A stretch of 36,767 bases of DNA. Source: an uncultured Clostridia bacterium. GTDB taxonomy: Bacteria; Bacillota; Clostridia; Saccharofermentanales; Saccharofermentanaceae. The notes beneath the pieces were generated by a model. The model had not been told where the DNA came from and made no database searches. It worked only from the letters and a program-made list of their open reading frames with translations. Below are positions 2,910-33,448 of this stretch, piece after piece. The number at the start of each line of letters is the position of its first letter. Position 1 is the stretch's first letter. The stretch spans positions 1 to 36,767 of the forward strand of contig CAMZBB010000018.1 of assembly GCA_947304405.1 (NCBI GenBank). The letters run 5' to 3'. The position numbers were made by a program, and so were the translations under genes.

Positions 2910-3677
2910 ATGAAAAAGATCTTTTCAGGGATAATGGTTTTGGCGCTGCTTTTGGCAGCGTTATTCTCTTTCGCGGGATGCGGGAGCAAACCTAAAAATG
3001 CGATTACTTCGAACTGGAAGTTCGATTCACTGATATATGACGGAAAGACAACAAAAGCATCGCAAATGAGTGAGGATGAGATGCCGATGATCATTATCGA
3101 TGCCGACAATCTGAATGCTAATTATTATTTTGTCACTTACCGTCAGAACGGCGCGAACCACAATGCGAGCATGGAGCAACGTGCAGACGGGTCCTATCTC
3201 ATCGATTTTGTCGATTCGGACAGAAACATGATCGCCGAGGTCGAAAATGACCGTCTGACTCTCAAGATCGAGGGAATGGTCGGCACGAGCATCGTTTTCA
3301 CTGCGACTCAGGAGGAGATCCTGATCCCGATAAGCGAAAAAGAAGGCCCCGAATACATAAAGGCGAATATGGTCGGCAAGAACAAAGTTGAGATCACCAA
3401 TGAAGGCGATACCGAATACACGTACGGCAAGTATTACCAGCTTGAAGTGCAGAAGAACGGAAAGTGGTACTATGCCCGCTGTGAGCAGCATTATGCCTGG
3501 ACCGATATCGCCGTTATACTTGCCCCCGGTGACAGTAACACCGAGGAATATGAGCTTTCATACTACGGGAAACTCAAATCCGGCTGGTACAGGCTTGCGT
3601 TATGCAACGAAAATGCCTGCATCTACGCTTACTTCACTGTAAACGTGGATGGCACGATCTCTTATAAGTACGTTTGA
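2910..3677 (+). CDS. Lipoprotein with C-terminal Ig-like domain
   Basis: 255 residues with a lipoprotein signal: MKKIFSG, a hydrophobic stretch, and lipobox FAGC with Cys24 as the lipidation site. Residues about 35-140 form a small beta-rich domain (SNWKFDSLIYDGK onward). Residues about 150-255 resemble the bacterial Ig-like domain often found in clostridial lipoproteins (EYTYGKYYQLEVQKNGKWY, then LAPGDSNTEEYELSYYGKLK and GWYRL), compatible with Pfam Big_14. It is anchored on the outer face of the membrane. No catalytic motif is visible. The next gene starts 42 bases downstream with its own ribosome site, so they may share a transcript. Confidence 0.8.
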   Translation: MKKIFSGIMVLALLLAALFSFAGCGSKPKNAITSNWKFDSLIYDGKTTKASQMSEDEMPMIIIDADNLNANYYFVTYRQNGANHNASMEQRADGSYLIDFVDSDRNMIAEVENDRLTLKIEGMVGTSIVFTATQEEILIPISEKEGPEYIKANMVGKNKVEITNEGDTEYTYGKYYQLEVQKNGKWYYARCEQHYAWTDIAVILAPGDSNTEEYELSYYGKLKSGWYRLALCNENACIYAYFTVNVDGTISYKYV

Positions 3678-3719
3678 TCGATCTTTCTCTCAACCTAAGT
3701 AATAAAGGAAGAACCATTT

Positions 3720-5537
3720 ATGCATGAGATAATGGGTTATGTAGTACGAATGGACTTTGTTAACCACTTTACCGGGTGGTTTGTGATCATCTTTTCGATA
3801 ATACAGATGATAAGGCACCGCTCTCTGGTCAAGAAAGACAAAGATTTGAAGGCCTGGAGAATATGGAGCATCATGTGCTTTATTCCCGTGATCGTATGTG
3901 CGGTACACTTTTATCTTTGCTGTTATAAGGGAAATGAATCTTTTTCGATCAAATTGTACCATCCCATGTATTCGGGAGCGCTGGCACTGATCTTCCTGTG
4001 CCTTCTCGGTAAAAGGAAAGTGCTGTACAAGTTCGCGGCCTTTCTTACGATCCTGGTATCGTTCATCGGCTTTGGATACACGGTCTTTAAACAGCTTGCC
4101 GATTACAACATGCCGCATATCGCAAACTTTTCGAGATGCGGATATGTTCAGAGCTTCGACAGGATAATGGCTGACATGAAGAAGAATTACGTGCTGAACG
4201 ACTGGAAGGAGATCGATTACGACAAGATCAGGGCCGACCTCATGCCGAAAGTTGAGGAAGCCGAGAAAAACCATGATCCCAAGGCGTATTACAAGGCTTT
4301 GGTTGAGTATGTGAGTTATTTTCACGACGGCCACATAAGCCTTGACAGCATGTCCGGGGAAGGCGCGAAGTTTGCGGCTGAAGCGGATGCGGAACTGGCG
4401 GGAAATGATTACGGATTTGCGCTATTTACCATTGACAGCGGTGAGACGATCGCCGTCAAGGTCGAAAAGGGCAGCGCCGCAGAGAAAGCCGGCATCCGTG
4501 CCGGAACCGTTATTACCAAGTGGAACGGCGTGGCAATCGCCAAGGCCATAGATGAAGCAGAATACACCCTTGGCAAGGAGGCGCCGGTCAAGGCGAATTT
4601 CGACAGGGTAAAGGCACTGTACTTCCCGGGGCTTTCCAATGGCACGGTCGAGGTCACTTTTATCGGCGATGATCTTTCCGAGAAAACGGTATCTTTGGAC
4701 AGCATCGGGAATTATTACAAAAGGCTTATAGCAGCGCTTGCGGATTTTAATCACGAGGGACTTGCCGCAACTTTCGATATTGAAGAGTTCAAAAAGCTCC
4801 CCAACGACGAGAAAGTGGCTTTATATAACAAGTTAACCGAAGAAAGAGAAAACTACCGTTCAAAGATGATCTCCGCCGACTGCGGATACATAGTCTTCAG
4901 AAGTGAATTCTACGATACCGCGGGCGATGTAATAGCCGATATCAAAGGCGAATATCCCGAAATAAAGGATCTGGTCGATTCCAAACTCAAAGAGATGAAG
5001 TCTAAGGGAATGAAGCGCCTTATCATTGATGCCAGAAACAACACAGGCGGATATCCGCTCATCTCGTGTGAACTTGTCTCGCTCTTTACCGACCATGAGA
5101 TCGATATGGATGTTGAAGGCGGCAGCGTTAGAAAAGTCAGAGTAGACGGAAGGTGGAAAGATCTGGACGTTATCGTGCTGACAAACATGAATTGCTGCAG
5201 CGCCGGCGACGGCCTCATATATGCATTCCTGCAGTGTCCCAACGTGACCGTGATGGGCATGACGACTTCTATGGGTATCTTTCAGTCGGTCGGAGGCGTG
5301 TGCGTAACGCCCAATTCTGAATTCATGCTGTCTTATCCGATGTTCCAGTCTAACGATGCCAACGGCGTGACCATGATCGATACCAAGCCTGACAGGATCA
5401 CAAGGGTTCCCATCGATGTGATGATCCCCGTAACGGCCAAAGCATGTGAGACCATCTTTGACGGAGACGGCGATACGGATTACGAGATTGATTTTGCGCT
5501 CGCTTACTTTGCAGGAAGCCGCAAGGATAATGTATAA
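3720..5537 (+). CDS. Membrane-anchored S41-family protease with PDZ domain
   Basis: 605 residues, with AAAGGAAG about 8 bases before the ATG. The first 125 residues hold about four hydrophobic helices (about 13-30, 48-68, 84-97, 102-122). A helical lead-in ends in YVSYFHDGHISL, then comes a PDZ domain (about 225-275; EKGSAAEKAGIRAGTVI) and an S41 catalytic core with RLIIDARNNTGGYPL and NCCSAGDG, where Ser494 is the likely nucleophile. The lysine that CtpA-type proteases carry after the serine is not evident (GMTTSMGIFQSVGG instead). The HDGH motif fits the tricorn/IRBP-like branch with a Ser-His arrangement. Fusion of this core to a polytopic N-terminal part is uncommon. Substrate unknown; envelope protein processing is likely. 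Confidence 0.85.
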   Translation: MHEIMGYVVRMDFVNHFTGWFVIIFSIIQMIRHRSLVKKDKDLKAWRIWSIMCFIPVIVCAVHFYLCCYKGNESFSIKLYHPMYSGALALIFLCLLGKRKVLYKFAAFLTILVSFIGFGYTVFKQLADYNMPHIANFSRCGYVQSFDRIMADMKKNYVLNDWKEIDYDKIRADLMPKVEEAEKNHDPKAYYKALVEYVSYFHDGHISLDSMSGEGAKFAAEADAELAGNDYGFALFTIDSGETIAVKVEKGSAAEKAGIRAGTVITKWNGVAIAKAIDEAEYTLGKEAPVKANFDRVKALYFPGLSNGTVEVTFIGDDLSEKTVSLDSIGNYYKRLIAALADFNHEGLAATFDIEEFKKLPNDEKVALYNKLTEERENYRSKMISADCGYIVFRSEFYDTAGDVIADIKGEYPEIKDLVDSKLKEMKSKGMKRLIIDARNNTGGYPLISCELVSLFTDHEIDMDVEGGSVRKVRVDGRWKDLDVIVLTNMNCCSAGDGLIYAFLQCPNVTVMGMTTSMGIFQSVGGVCVTPNSEFMLSYPMFQSNDANGVTMIDTKPDRITRVPIDVMIPVTAKACETIFDGDGDTDYEIDFALAYFAGSRKDNV

Positions 5538-27998: not shown

Positions 27999-28036
27999 AA
28001 CCGACAAAACCTGAAAAAACAAAGCTTTTGTCGGTT
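27999..28036. repeat. Inverted repeat related to the 30.9-kb array
   Basis: AACCGACAAAA (27999-28009) and its exact complement TTTTGTCGGTT (28026-28036) are separated by a 16-base A-rich loop. Arm, loop length and A-rich loop resemble the first unit of the array at 30909-30948, whose arm reads ACCTACAAAA. The arm word also forms the direct repeats at 17141. It could also act as a terminator. A separate hairpin, GGCCGC/GCGGCC, lies at 28054-28072. Confidence 0.6.
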
Positions 28037-30481: not shown

Positions 30482-30520
30482 CCGCGGACACCTGTGCCCC
30501 CCTGCACCGATCACACCAAG

Positions 30521-30868
30521 ATGGACCAGACAAAGACACCAAAACCAAAGAGTTCAAAGCTTCCGGTCGTGATGGCGGTCATTCCCGTCGTGCTTTTTAT
30601 CCTAAACATATTGGGACTGATACTCATGTCCCTTGGGTACAGGACGAATGACCATCAGGAGTTCGTATTTGTCATTGCGGGGATCTTTTCTTTGATCGGA
30701 GTGTTCGTCCAGCCGTTCATCAGCCTTATTCTTGAGATAATCGGTCTTGCCGTTGCCGCCAAGAGAAAGAACAAGGCGATTACGGTCATTCTCGTGATCG
30801 AGCTCTTCCTGACGGTCATCATTGCGATAGTCGTAGGGCTCCTTTTCACATCGATAATGAGATCTTAA
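30521..30868 (+). CDS. Small three-helix membrane protein
   Basis: 115 residues if started at the ATG at 30521. A GTG at 30494 would add nine residues; neither has a clear ribosome site, so the start is unsure. A charged, Lys/Pro-rich N-terminus (DQTKTPKPKSSK) precedes hydrophobic helices at about 15-38, 50-80 and 88-112. Unknown function. It is likely co-transcribed with the preceding gene and lies just before the inverted-repeat array. Confidence 0.6.
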   Translation: MDQTKTPKPKSSKLPVVMAVIPVVLFILNILGLILMSLGYRTNDHQEFVFVIAGIFSLIGVFVQPFISLILEIIGLAVAAKRKNKAITVILVIELFLTVIIAIVVGLLFTSIMRS

Positions 30869-30908
30869 GCGTCCTGAAGTGACCCCGCTATTATTGATAG
30901 AATTTATA

Positions 30909-31235
30909 CTACCTACAAAATAAAGAGAAAGCCCGATTTTGTAGGTAGAATCATTTGCTGTTGGCCGCGACCTACGGGTTAAAACGATTAATGTGTGTTT
31001 TTAGCGGGTAGGTTTTGGATATTTATCGTCTTGTTTTGCCGCGACCTACGGGTTAAATCCCAATTTCGTCAATTTTACCCGTAGGTTTGGCGCTTCGCGG
31101 ATGCATATTTCGAAAAAACCTACGGGTTAAAATACACTTTTTCCAAATTTCACCCGTAGGTAATCGTTTTAATAGCGCCCGAAAAACAAAAACCTACGGG
31201 TTAAAACCACTAATATGCGTTTTCAACAGGTAGGT
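30909..31235. repeat. Array of five inverted-repeat units, four at exact 74-bp spacing
   Basis: Five units of 40-44 bases, each with facing arms: 30909-30948, 30970-31013, 31044-31086, 31118-31161 and 31192-31235. Units 2-5 begin with ACCTACGGGTTAAA and start exactly 74 bases apart; right arms read like TTTTACCCGTAGGT in units 3 and 4, and are looser (CGGGTAGGT, AACAGGTAGGT) in units 2 and 5. Unit 1 has a different word, CTACCTACAAAAT, with a perfect 13-bp complement. Loops of units 2 and 5 resemble each other, as do 3 and 4. Spacers of 30-31 bases differ. The 511-base gap (30869-31378) has no convincing ORF. This is not CRISPR: the inner sequences vary and no cas genes are seen. Confidence 0.85.
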
Positions 31236-31322: not shown

Positions 31323-31378
31323 CTCCCCATTCGTGTTAAAGAAGTTTTACAATTACGACGATGTGGGGGGAACACACT

Positions 31379-33448
31379 TTGTTTAAGATCAAAAAACCGG
31401 TCTCATTGCTGCTTGCCGCGGTAATGACGGTCACCATGTGCAGCTGCAATGCTGATGACGCTAACGAGGTCTCGCAGCAGACAACCGGCGGATATCATTT
31501 CCATTGGATGGATTCCAACATTTTCGAGAACATCGAGAAGATGGGAAAAGTCAACATAAAGGACGATTTCTACGCGGCGGTTACTTACGATTGGGCGAAA
31601 GACCAGGTCGAAGACTACACCTACTCGATCTCTTCGTTCGGCGAGGCAATGAAAAACGTCGTTCAGAAGAAGAGAGCCATATTGGACGACAAGTCGATCC
31701 AGAACAAGAACGTAGAGCTCGTACGCAAGGCCGACGGGCTTTTCAACGACTGGGAATACAGGAACAAGATGGGCGTTGAGCCTTTGAAAAAGTACCTGGG
31801 CTACATTGACGACATCAAGACGATAGACGATGTCTCGGCTTTTATGCTCGACAATGACAAAAACCCGTTTGCCATTTCTTTCGTGGACATGGATTATTCC
31901 AATAACGAGGCGCTTGAGGATTACCGCGCCATGATGCTCACAAGACCCAAGCTACTTTTGGGGGACGCGAACTATTACGTCAACATCACGGACGACGGCT
32001 ACAAGAAGAAGGACAAGATCGAAAAGCAGCTCAAATACATTTTCGACAGGTGCGGATATTCCAAGAAGGATATCGACAATGTCATGAAAGGGTGCTTCAG
32101 GCTGGAATCCAAGATAGTCCACCTCGATTACACCGAGATTCCTGATTACAAGACCGTTCATCCGAGGTCCGAGGTCATCTCGCTCGCCGGCAATTATCCT
32201 TTCGAAGCGCAGCTCAAGCACTACAAGATTGCGACGTGCGATCACTTCATGGGCGATCTCTCCTACTTGGACAAGCTCGAGACTTTGTATACCGGTGATA
32301 ACGTTGATGACATGAAGGCTTACTTCAAGGCGCGTCTGGCCCTCGAGTCACTGCGTTACCTCGATAAGGATTCCTATGATTTCTACATGGATTCGAGCGT
32401 TGACCGCGCCAACCAGTTCGCACAGCGTGTCGATAAGGACCCGGATCTGGTGTTCTTTTCGATGCTCAACTCGAATGCGCTGACCGCCGCAGTAGACCAG
32501 ATGTATCTCGATCAGTATTTCGATCAGAAAACATATGACGAGTGCAAGATGTTCATCAAGCTGATCAAAGAGAAGTACGAGGTAATGATCAGCGAGAACA
32601 AGAAACTGTCAGATGCCAGCAAGAAGGCCGTCACTGAGAAGCTCAACAAGATGGGCGAAAACGTCATCAAGCCGTCCAACACCGCCGATTTCACGGGCGT
32701 GGATTTCAGGTCGAAAGAGGAAGGCGGTTCATTCCTTGAAGCTCTGTGCGCCATCAACAAGGCCAAGTACGATCACATCGGCGTTATGGTCGAAAAGCAG
32801 TACGCCAGGGATTTCTGGGACATCTACGACGGGACCTTGTCAACCACTGAAACGAACGCCGCTTACTACGGCATGCAGAATGCCATCTATATCAGGGCCG
32901 GAATCCTCGTAGAACCGATGTATTCCCCTGATTACCCGATCGAAAGAAAGCTCGGCTCGGTCGTTGCAGTCCTGGGCCACGAGATATCCCACGCGTTTGA
33001 TTCCTCCAGCATTTACTATGATGCCGAGGGCAAGAATAACGACATTGTTACCAAGGAAGAACTTGAGCAGTGGGACAACGTTGTCAGCAGGATCGGAGAC
33101 CATTTCTCGGGATATTCTCCTTTTGACGGCTGCGATGCGTACGAAGGCGGCAGTCTGGTCAGCGGCGAGGTTATCGCGGATGCGGAAGGCTTCAAGTGCG
33201 CTCTCATGATCTCCAAGGATTACGATAACTTCGATTACGATACATTCTTCAGAGGCTATGCACGTTTCTGGCGTTTTATCGTGACAAAGGAGAACCAGAC
33301 GAATGCGGTCAAGAATGACCCTCATCCGTTCGAATTCATAAGGGTCAATTACACCATGATGCAGTTCGATGAATTCTACGAGACATACGGCATTAAGCCG
33401 GGCGACGGAATGTATATGGATCCCTCCGAGAGGATCCTGATCTGGTGA
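31379..33448 (+). CDS. M13-family (neprilysin-like) metallopeptidase lipoprotein
   Basis: 689 residues from a TTG at 31379 with GGGGGGA 6 bases upstream; an ATG at 31361 lies before the ribosome site. Lipobox VTMCSC gives a lipidated Cys. The M13 fold is full length: a large N-terminal helical part, then the zinc motif HEISH (His534, Glu535, His538) and SGEVIADAEG with Glu597 as third ligand and Asp601 as support, followed by FFRGYARFWR and the closing segment. The expected set of catalytic residues is present. It should cleave short peptides outside the cell. The permease-like gene begins right at its stop region, so an operon is likely. Confidence 0.93.
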   Translation: MFKIKKPVSLLLAAVMTVTMCSCNADDANEVSQQTTGGYHFHWMDSNIFENIEKMGKVNIKDDFYAAVTYDWAKDQVEDYTYSISSFGEAMKNVVQKKRAILDDKSIQNKNVELVRKADGLFNDWEYRNKMGVEPLKKYLGYIDDIKTIDDVSAFMLDNDKNPFAISFVDMDYSNNEALEDYRAMMLTRPKLLLGDANYYVNITDDGYKKKDKIEKQLKYIFDRCGYSKKDIDNVMKGCFRLESKIVHLDYTEIPDYKTVHPRSEVISLAGNYPFEAQLKHYKIATCDHFMGDLSYLDKLETLYTGDNVDDMKAYFKARLALESLRYLDKDSYDFYMDSSVDRANQFAQRVDKDPDLVFFSMLNSNALTAAVDQMYLDQYFDQKTYDECKMFIKLIKEKYEVMISENKKLSDASKKAVTEKLNKMGENVIKPSNTADFTGVDFRSKEEGGSFLEALCAINKAKYDHIGVMVEKQYARDFWDIYDGTLSTTETNAAYYGMQNAIYIRAGILVEPMYSPDYPIERKLGSVVAVLGHEISHAFDSSSIYYDAEGKNNDIVTKEELEQWDNVVSRIGDHFSGYSPFDGCDAYEGGSLVSGEVIADAEGFKCALMISKDYDNFDYDTFFRGYARFWRFIVTKENQTNAVKNDPHPFEFIRVNYTMMQFDEFYETYGIKPGDGMYMDPSERILIW

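What the first reader, a model, noticed from the sequence alone, without database searches (positions are those of the whole stretch)
30909..31235. Regular array of inverted repeats with an exact 74-bp step
Units 2-5 begin with the same ACCTACGGGTTAAA word at 30970, 31044, 31118 and 31192, exactly 74 bases (about seven helical turns) apart. Each faces a reverse-complement arm 43-44 bases away. Loops of units 2/5 and 3/4 match each other better than across pairs (A-B-B-A), so the units look like old tandem copies that kept spacing and arms while drifting elsewhere. The arms, not the spacers, are conserved. This fits a protein or RNA-processing array: phased binding sites for a dimer, a replication or partition site, a mobile-element end cluster, or a multi-hairpin RNA.
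Basis: partly seen in the sequence, partly recalled or inferred. Interest (0 to 1): 0.72.

Follow-up and report, generated by a model that had tools for sequence, protein, structure and literature searches.

The report
Nuclease-linked, helix-phased DNA palindrome arrays
The window holds one of many arrays of DNA palindromes, spaced about seven turns of the double helix apart, that are scattered through a likely Saccharofermentans genome and its relatives; arrays of the same kind sit just ahead of the genes of an unnamed predicted nuclease family whose sequence co-varies with the palindromes, so these proteins likely bind their own arrays.

Summary
Units 2-5 repeat at 73.5-74.5 bp (seven helical turns); unit 1 lies 63 bp (six turns) from unit 2. 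A two-unit model finds this geometry in 36 of 85 genomes of the genus (own included) and 13 of four other genera of the family; arms differ between genomes by paired changes, and each genome has its own few five-base arm 'words'. The arrays track a Pfam-less ~267-aa protein with a predicted PD-(D/E)XK nuclease domain: its close subfamily is in 28 of those 36 genomes and 0 of the other 49, and 31 of 35 of its genes carry such units in a fixed register ahead of the start codon. Leaders of distant members often repeat at about 42, 52, 63, 74 or 84 bp (whole turns). Leader words match dispersed words of the same genome more than chance, and a predicted beta-hairpin co-varies with the word. Best reading: the protein binds its own phased arrays, in its leader (likely autoregulation) and elsewhere. 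For the window's main word no matching gene was found. Binding and cutting are untested.

The parts
30875..30885 (+). TGAAGTGACCC, left terminal-type motif shared by several arrays of this genome (TGAAGTGAACC)
   Evidence: right-hand partner in the window is degenerate
30909..30948 (.). Palindromic unit 1, arms TACCTACAAAA/TTTTGTAGGTA (word CTACA), centre 63 bp (six turns) before unit 2
30970..31013 (.). Palindromic unit 2, word GGGTT; right arm departs at three positions
31044..31086 (.). Palindromic unit 3, word GGGTT/GGGTA
   Evidence: R1 match
31118..31161 (.). Palindromic unit 4, word GGGTT/GGGTG
   Evidence: R1 match 31118-31235, 100.5 bits (this window is in R1's training set)
31192..31235 (.). 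Palindromic unit 5, word GGGTT; right arm departs at two positions
30494..30868 (+). Upstream neighbour, 124-aa predicted membrane protein, no Pfam family above cut-off
31361..33448 (+). Downstream neighbour, M13-family peptidase (695 aa); the array lies between two genes in tandem
27999..28036 (.). A second, single palindromic unit in the window, arms ACCGACAAAA/CTTTTGTCGGT (word CGACA)
   Evidence: (E 0.004)

Best explanation
The array is a set of five palindromic DNA sites, 63 and then about 74 bp (six and seven helical turns) apart, that are likely binding sites for a member of an unnamed family of predicted PD-(D/E)XK-type nucleases, whose genes carry the same kind of array between a predicted promoter and the start codon. 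Shown: arrays with this geometry recur in the genome and family, track a close subfamily of this protein, and stand in a fixed register upstream of its gene. Inferred: a dimer of the protein reads the paired five-base word of each palindrome, probably with the beta-hairpin at the tip of its N-terminal helical hairpin, and several dimers line up on one face of the DNA because the step is a whole number of turns. Inferred: bound to the leader array it blocks RNA polymerase and so limits its own expression. Inferred and weaker: its nuclease domain acts at dispersed arrays and repair from other copies spreads one word through the genome, which would explain why species differ in their words even at corresponding positions.
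For: Geometry: R1, a two-unit model, finds matches in 36 of 85 genomes of the genus, own included, and in 13 genomes of other genera of the family but only 2 borderline ones outside it among 188. Arms co-vary: 15 of 22 pairs with double changes, 62 cells against 24 in shuffles (16 sequences). Step: 101 of 123 neighbour spacings are 73-75 bp, the next classes 51-53 (6) and 61.5-64 (3) (loci picked with R1). Leaders of family genes: of 59 non-redundant leaders with a modal repeat distance, 53 fall at 42, 51-54, 63-65, 73-75, 83-85 or 104-106. Protein link: close subfamily in 28 of 36 array genomes, 0 of 49 others, Fisher 1.3e-15; R1 array upstream in 25 of 28 such loci, none downstream in the flanks held; unit centres cluster 40-56, 114-130 and 185-205 bp before the start codon (31 of 35 leaders with a framed unit). 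Word match of leader and dispersed arrays in the same genome: mean 0.505 against 0.164 permuted, 3 of 10,000 (12 genomes). Residues 38-62, which hold the predicted beta-hairpin, predict the word given the rest of the protein: partial r 0.42, 0 of 500 permutations; five other segments do not (23 proteins). Nuclease domain: PADLOC PDC-S68 C-terminus in 5 of 5 members (E 2e-23 to 1e-26); R-S-K-S-E166, P-D197-F, E212-H invariant in 49 of 49.
Confidence: 0.7

Rival explanations
1. The arrays act as RNA: transcribed multi-hairpin leaders (and 3' tails) that the family protein, or another factor, binds or cuts; the palindromes are kept for RNA folding.
For: In the leaders the array lies downstream of a promoter-like TTGAAG-N-TAGGAT and would be transcribed. 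Covariation fits hairpins. G-U 29 against A-C 15 in leaders, p 0.049.
Against: Dispersed arrays show no wobble bias: tandem sense 21 to 17, convergent 20 to 19. Steps fall mostly on whole DNA helical turns, which RNA does not need. No Rfam family matches the window.
Confidence: 0.15
2. The arrays are passive mobile palindromes (MITE- or REP-like) spread by an unrelated transposase; their place upstream of the nuclease-like gene is where an ancestral element carried them.
For: Two copies (C27, C28) are bounded by inverted TGAAGTGAACC-type ends about 315 bp apart; C27 has ATC at both flanks. Copies 94% alike over 324 bp sit on C18 and C24 beside different genes.
Against: No rve transposase in the own genome; Y1 transposases absent there and not associated with arrays (7 of 36 against 14 of 49, p 0.45). 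Arrays keep corresponding gene positions in different genomes while their words change. Such ends were not looked for in other species.
Confidence: 0.1
3. The arrays are nucleoid or supercoiling landmarks at gene ends, bound by a general chromosome protein, and the nuclease-like gene is only one of their many neighbours.
For: Of 52 arrays with both flanks called by a simple ORF rule, 21 lie between convergent, 22 between tandem and 9 between divergent genes (no background rate was computed).
Against: An R1 array is upstream of the family gene in 25 of 28 loci with a register fixed to the start codon, and residues 38-62 of the protein co-vary with the word.
Confidence: 0.05

Closest known systems
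REP/REPIN elements with RAYT (TnpAREP) transposases ('REPtrons')
   Same: Short intergenic palindromes in many copies, partly species-specific types, some arrays with regular spacing, mostly downstream of genes, and a nuclease gene associated with its own palindromes and co-evolving with them (PMC3733652 and PMC8266576: abstracts; PMC3116915: passages).
   Different: No constant GTAG/CGTC tag; Y1 transposase absent in the own genome and not associated; partner is a predicted PD-(D/E)XK protein; its arrays were found upstream only, between predicted promoter and start; steps fall mostly on whole helical turns.
BOX elements and other modular MITE-like intergenic repeats (recalled)
   Same: Variable number of internal palindromic modules, dispersed, possible terminal repeats.
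   Different: Modules with a fixed helical step, arms that change in pairs between species, and a linked protein family.
Restriction-modification control (C) proteins and autorepressed nuclease operons (recalled)
   Same: A DNA-cutting system that could limit its own expression through palindromic sites at its promoter.
   Different: Arrays of about 3-5 units downstream of the predicted promoter, plus many dispersed copies; no methyltransferase was looked for.
PADLOC candidates PDC-S68/S69 and HEAT_CxxC_PD-DEXK
   Same: Related C-terminal domain; relatives of it are also part of AAA family ATPases on plasmids.
   Different: Here a small stand-alone protein with another N-terminal domain and its own DNA arrays; the match covers only the last ~120 of 1221 positions of PDC-S68.

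Membership tests
REP/REPIN-RAYT | Unpaired GTAG or CGTC tag at one end of each palindrome | tested here: not met
   Base frequencies of 143 units: the conserved AC..GT frame is paired and the inner word varies; no constant unpaired tag.
REP/REPIN-RAYT | Cognate Y1 (HuH) transposase in the genome | tested here: not met
   PF01797: 0 in own genome; 7 of 36 array genomes, 14 of 49 others.
REP/REPIN-RAYT | Many dispersed extragenic palindromic copies | tested here: met
MITE | Terminal inverted repeats and target-site duplication | tested here: inconclusive
   Both ends seen at C27 and C28, flanking repeat ATC only at C27; one end or degenerate ends at others of this genome.
CRISPR array | Near-identical direct repeats with unique spacers | tested here: not met
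   Arms vary and pair; spacers are shared between array copies.
CRISPR array | cas genes nearby | not tested
   No cas search was run.
PD-(D/E)XK nucleases | Homology of sequence profile to a named PD-(D/E)XK domain | tested here: inconclusive
   HEAT_CxxC_PDDEXK 3 of 5 at E 0.0002-0.009; strong match (5 of 5, E 2e-23 or lower) only to PDC-S68, whose domain the library does not name. No Pfam above cut-off in 49 members.
PD-(D/E)XK nucleases | Fold match to solved enzymes | tested here: inconclusive
PD-(D/E)XK nucleases | Cuts nucleic acid | not testable with these tools
   Invariant E166, D197, E212 in 49 of 49 is consistent only.
Rfam RNA families | Match at gathering score | tested here: not met
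   0 matches in the window.

The most novel reading that the evidence does not exclude
A protein-DNA address system of Clostridia: each member of a predicted nuclease family reads a private five-base word with a beta-hairpin, represses itself by sitting on a helically phased array in its own leader, and acts at dispersed arrays so that repair rewrites them all to the new word; every species thereby owns a private set of addresses that can be swapped in place without moving.
Probability: 0.3. Interest if true: 0.95.

Novelty: categorically new. Interest (0 to 1): 0.85.

Why it matters
It links a class of orphan intergenic repeats to a large protein family (2003 relatives at E <= 0.001) for which no Pfam family reached its cut-off in 49 members and no NCBIfam in 5, and offers many natural protein/site pairs in which a recognition code could be read off by comparison. 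If the step classes are as they look, they are direct genomic evidence of cooperative binding on one face of DNA. The change of word at corresponding gene positions would make concerted evolution of a protein and its many sites testable in one bacterial genus.

Tried and rejected
Tried and set aside. (1) IS3-type mobile element: the inverted ends suggested it (resemblance recalled), but no rve transposase in the own genome. (2) RAYT-driven REP: not supported. (3) RNA strand bias: loop-oriented counts G-U 41, A-C 47 were not a fair RNA test, since loop orientation varies within leaders; repeated by gene sense. (4) Viral scans for the arms gave one chance-like stretch each. (5) Blind hairpin scans of 400 kb each of G046 and G017 found few arrays, and 74 was not a top offset there; R1 on the same stretches gave 6 matches in G046 and 0 in G017. 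(6) The CGACA arm pattern in genome-contig hit 17 stretches; 4 hold arrays (genomes of this genus), 13 lone hairpins. (7) Single-column mutual information was noisy; its top column is an alignment end. The segment test replaced it. (8): no solved structure by sequence (best E 0.72). (9) The N-terminal domain was not folded and searched alone. (10) Eight listings of open-licence papers showed no description of this; subscription papers are not held. Limits: stricter filters were used and at most 43 candidates scored per genome, both strands counted, so counts are neither array numbers nor complete, and a zero is not proof. R1 was trained on 16 of the 27 two-unit windows listed, those with centres exactly 74.0 bp apart, from own, G009, G025 and G046, so those match by construction. 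The cut for 'close subfamily' was set after seeing the gap between E 2e-61 and 1e-51. Gene names such as RecJ, PurB, MTHFR, phosphotransacetylase are recalled from reading the proteins, not from a call. One search prints 10 of 11 groups with different words; two groups have a member with 0 scorable units, so I use 8 of 9. Weaker flank matches (25-33% identity, likely paralogs) were left out of the 11 groups.

Full report
What is in the window. Five palindromic units lie between a 124-aa predicted membrane protein gene and an M13 peptidase gene, both on the + strand. Units 2-5 start with ACCTACGGGTTAAA at 30970, 31044, 31118 and 31192; unit 1 has other arms and is centred 63 bp before unit 2. 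All six exact ACCTACGGGT words of the window lie here. A further lone unit with CGACA-type arms lies at 27999-28036.

A dispersed family in this genome. The arm word occurs 35 times in the 2.16-Mb assembly with at most one mismatch, against 1 for the reversed control, on seven contigs. A second arm type, TACCGAYAAAA with its partner, is found in 8 places, two of which may be one locus split between contigs. Array copies share units, spacers and order; the copy on C24 is 94% identical to the window's over 324 bp. Several arrays lie at contig ends, so the true number is likely higher.

Kept step, changed arms. The exact arm pair is absent from 98 relatives, 58 of them congeners. Yet congeners carry arrays with the same step and other arms. 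The genus is named by matching contig lengths to public records, one titled Saccharofermentans sp., so the name is an inference. Of 27 two-unit windows I took the 16 whose centres are exactly 74.0 bp apart, from own and three congeneric genomes; they align without a gap over 118 columns, which their equal length favours. The frame is AC, five variable positions (the 'word'), AAA, a loop of about 16, TTT, the paired word, GT. Of 22 pairs, 15 show changes on both sides (62 cells; shuffles 24; slid partners at most 14). Sliding and shuffling do not remove relatedness.

How widespread. The model R1 built from these finds matches in 36 of 85 genomes of the genus, own included; 49 give none. Match numbers run from 2 to 43, but both strands and overlapping pairs count, at most 43 candidates were scored per genome, and stricter filters were used. 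In 188 genomes of the order the 51 positives are 36 of the genus, 13 of four other genera of the same family, and 2 with E 0.005-0.006 in another family. Forty array loci were fetched, nearly all from the listing. In them and in 8 other sources, 171 of 228 scanned hairpins show the AC..GT frame; 101 of 123 neighbour spacings are 73-75 bp, 6 are 51-53 and 3 are 61.5-64. These loci were chosen with a model that holds the 74-bp step, so the share of 74 is biased upward.

Words belong to genomes. In 48 loci, word profiles of two loci of one genome overlap 0.501 on average (77 pairs), of two genomes 0.093 (1051 pairs), 0 of 1000 shuffles as large. For example G054 uses CGACT in 33 of 36 half-sites and G105 GGATA in 12 of 12, while G000, G009 and G046 use several words. 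I picked eleven groups of arrays that lie next to related genes in different genomes. In 9 of them every member has scorable units, and in 8 of these 9 the commonest word differs between genomes, though one of the 8 pairs shares its second word. One pair (sensor kinases, 39 and 66% identity) keeps its word and may be paralogous.

The linked protein. A Pfam-less protein of about 267 aa stood directly downstream of an array in 7 of 7 instances among loci that had been fetched for their arrays. Searched by protein in the 85 genomes, a close subfamily (at least 52% identity to the query, E <= 2.3e-61, the next genome at 1e-51) is present in 28, all among the 36 array genomes, and in 0 of 49 others (Fisher 1.3e-15). 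The 8 array genomes without it include five with only 2-9 R1 matches and three with 19-28. Of the 28 loci fetched with it, R1 finds an upstream array in 25; two of the other three have palindromes with other arms by eye and the third ends with its contig. Among 35 close-family leaders, 31 have at least one framed unit, and centres cluster at 40-56, 114-130, 185-205, near 260 and near 335 bp before the start codon. A loose promoter pattern stands ahead of the array at about -254 to -294 with three units, -330 to -341 with four and -402 to -413 with five in most leaders, so the array likely lies in the transcribed leader.

Beyond the genus. The family is present in 25 of 391 genomes sampled from the class, six of them of the own genus. 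Upstream stretches of 20 genes from other families and one contig labelled as phage were read: many carry arrays with arms of their own, others show none that is clear (L289, L301, L303, L304, L305, L308; L291 has direct repeats only). Of 77 leaders, 59 are non-redundant and have a modal direct-repeat distance: 29 of 30 close-family ones are 73-75 bp; of the other 29, 26 lie within 2 bp of a multiple of 10.5 (my count from the listing), in classes near 42, 52, 63, 74, 84 and 105 and a few single values. Some of these rest on only 2-5 repeated words. Resultant length at 10.5 bp is 0.79 (0.75 at 10, 0.72 at 11), and 0.57 (p about 6e-4) on distinct distances. The same scan of coding starts gives 22 scattered values from 76. 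I take this as the best sign that the element works as double-stranded DNA.

Pairing of protein and word. In 12 genomes with both, leader words cover on average 0.505 of dispersed half-sites, 0.164 when genomes are permuted, 3 of 10,000 as high. It fails in G023, G026 and G054 (0.00) and is weak in the window's genome (0.15): its two genes carry CTATA and ATACG-type leaders, and no gene for GGGTT was found in the 91% complete assembly. G002 and G018 were left out for want of framed leader units and do not match by eye. Among 23 proteins, identity in residues 38-62 predicts word identity given the rest of the protein (partial r 0.42, 0 of 500), while the other five segments give -0.14 to 0.14. 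In the predicted structure (mean pLDDT 93.5, pTM 0.71) this stretch holds a beta-hairpin (38-53) between two long helices, apart from the C-terminal domain. None of these tests corrects for phylogeny.

Mechanism. Shown: arrays, their step, their place ahead of the gene, co-occurrence and co-variation. Inferred: dimers bind each palindrome through the beta-hairpin, on one face of DNA; binding in the leader blocks transcription; action at dispersed arrays and repair from other copies keeps few words per genome. Wobble counts are balanced in dispersed arrays (21:17 and 20:19) and lean to G-U in leaders (29:15, p 0.049; near-duplicate leaders not removed), so an RNA part in the leader stays possible.

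Relation to known systems. REP/REPIN elements with RAYT enzymes are the nearest in logic: palindromes in many copies tied to a co-evolving nuclease gene (abstracts of PMC3733652 and PMC8266576; passages of PMC3116915, which also report regular tandem spacings). The tag and the Y1 enzyme that define them were tested and not met. So it works like a REPtron in part but is not one. I saw no description of it in the listings, which cover open-licence papers only.

Noticed in passing
window 27999-28036: A lone palindromic unit with CGACA-type arms between two tandem genes, a second copy of the element class in this window.
   Followed up: partly
G046:C2 (contig coordinates) 140272-140400 (L105), 304372-304590 (L113), 373444-373700 (L116): Arrays with a 72-bp step and unrelated, nested palindromic arms (ATTCTATC/CTCCA.., TTACCCAT/TCTTCCATT), perhaps other classes of the same phenomenon in one genome.
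   Followed up: no
G046:C2 (contig coordinates) 227450 (L109), 249629 (L110), 268886-269110 (L111): Arrays with a step of about 62 bp and arms TTCACGAAAA or AATCTACACTGA.
   Followed up: no
L122 18685-18980 and L129 16756-17025 (G017:C1): Alternating GGTTCACACAA / GTGTAAACAA half-sites about 26 bp apart (52-bp step) in a genome without R1 matches.
   Followed up: partly
upstream of close-family genes, about -285 to -410: AGTCTCA/TGAGACT motif in 22 of 34 leaders against 3 of 34 reversed, just ahead of the predicted promoter; possibly the site of a second regulator.
   Followed up: no
window 31087-31117 against L032 3565-3594: The spacer between two units is in opposite orientation in C18/C24/C75 and C27/C28/C57 (read by eye), as if a segment between inverted arms had flipped.
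   Followed up: no
L032 3446-3761, L033 58-372: Two ~315-bp elements with inverted TGAAGTGAACC-type ends; the C27 copy has ATC at both flanks.
   Followed up: partly
plasmid hits H2-H6; L289 (MT839528.1) 2995-3771: Relatives of the nuclease domain lie in genes annotated AAA family ATPase on plasmids of five genera, and a full-length relative is on a human faecal contig labelled Bacteriophage sp..
   Followed up: partly
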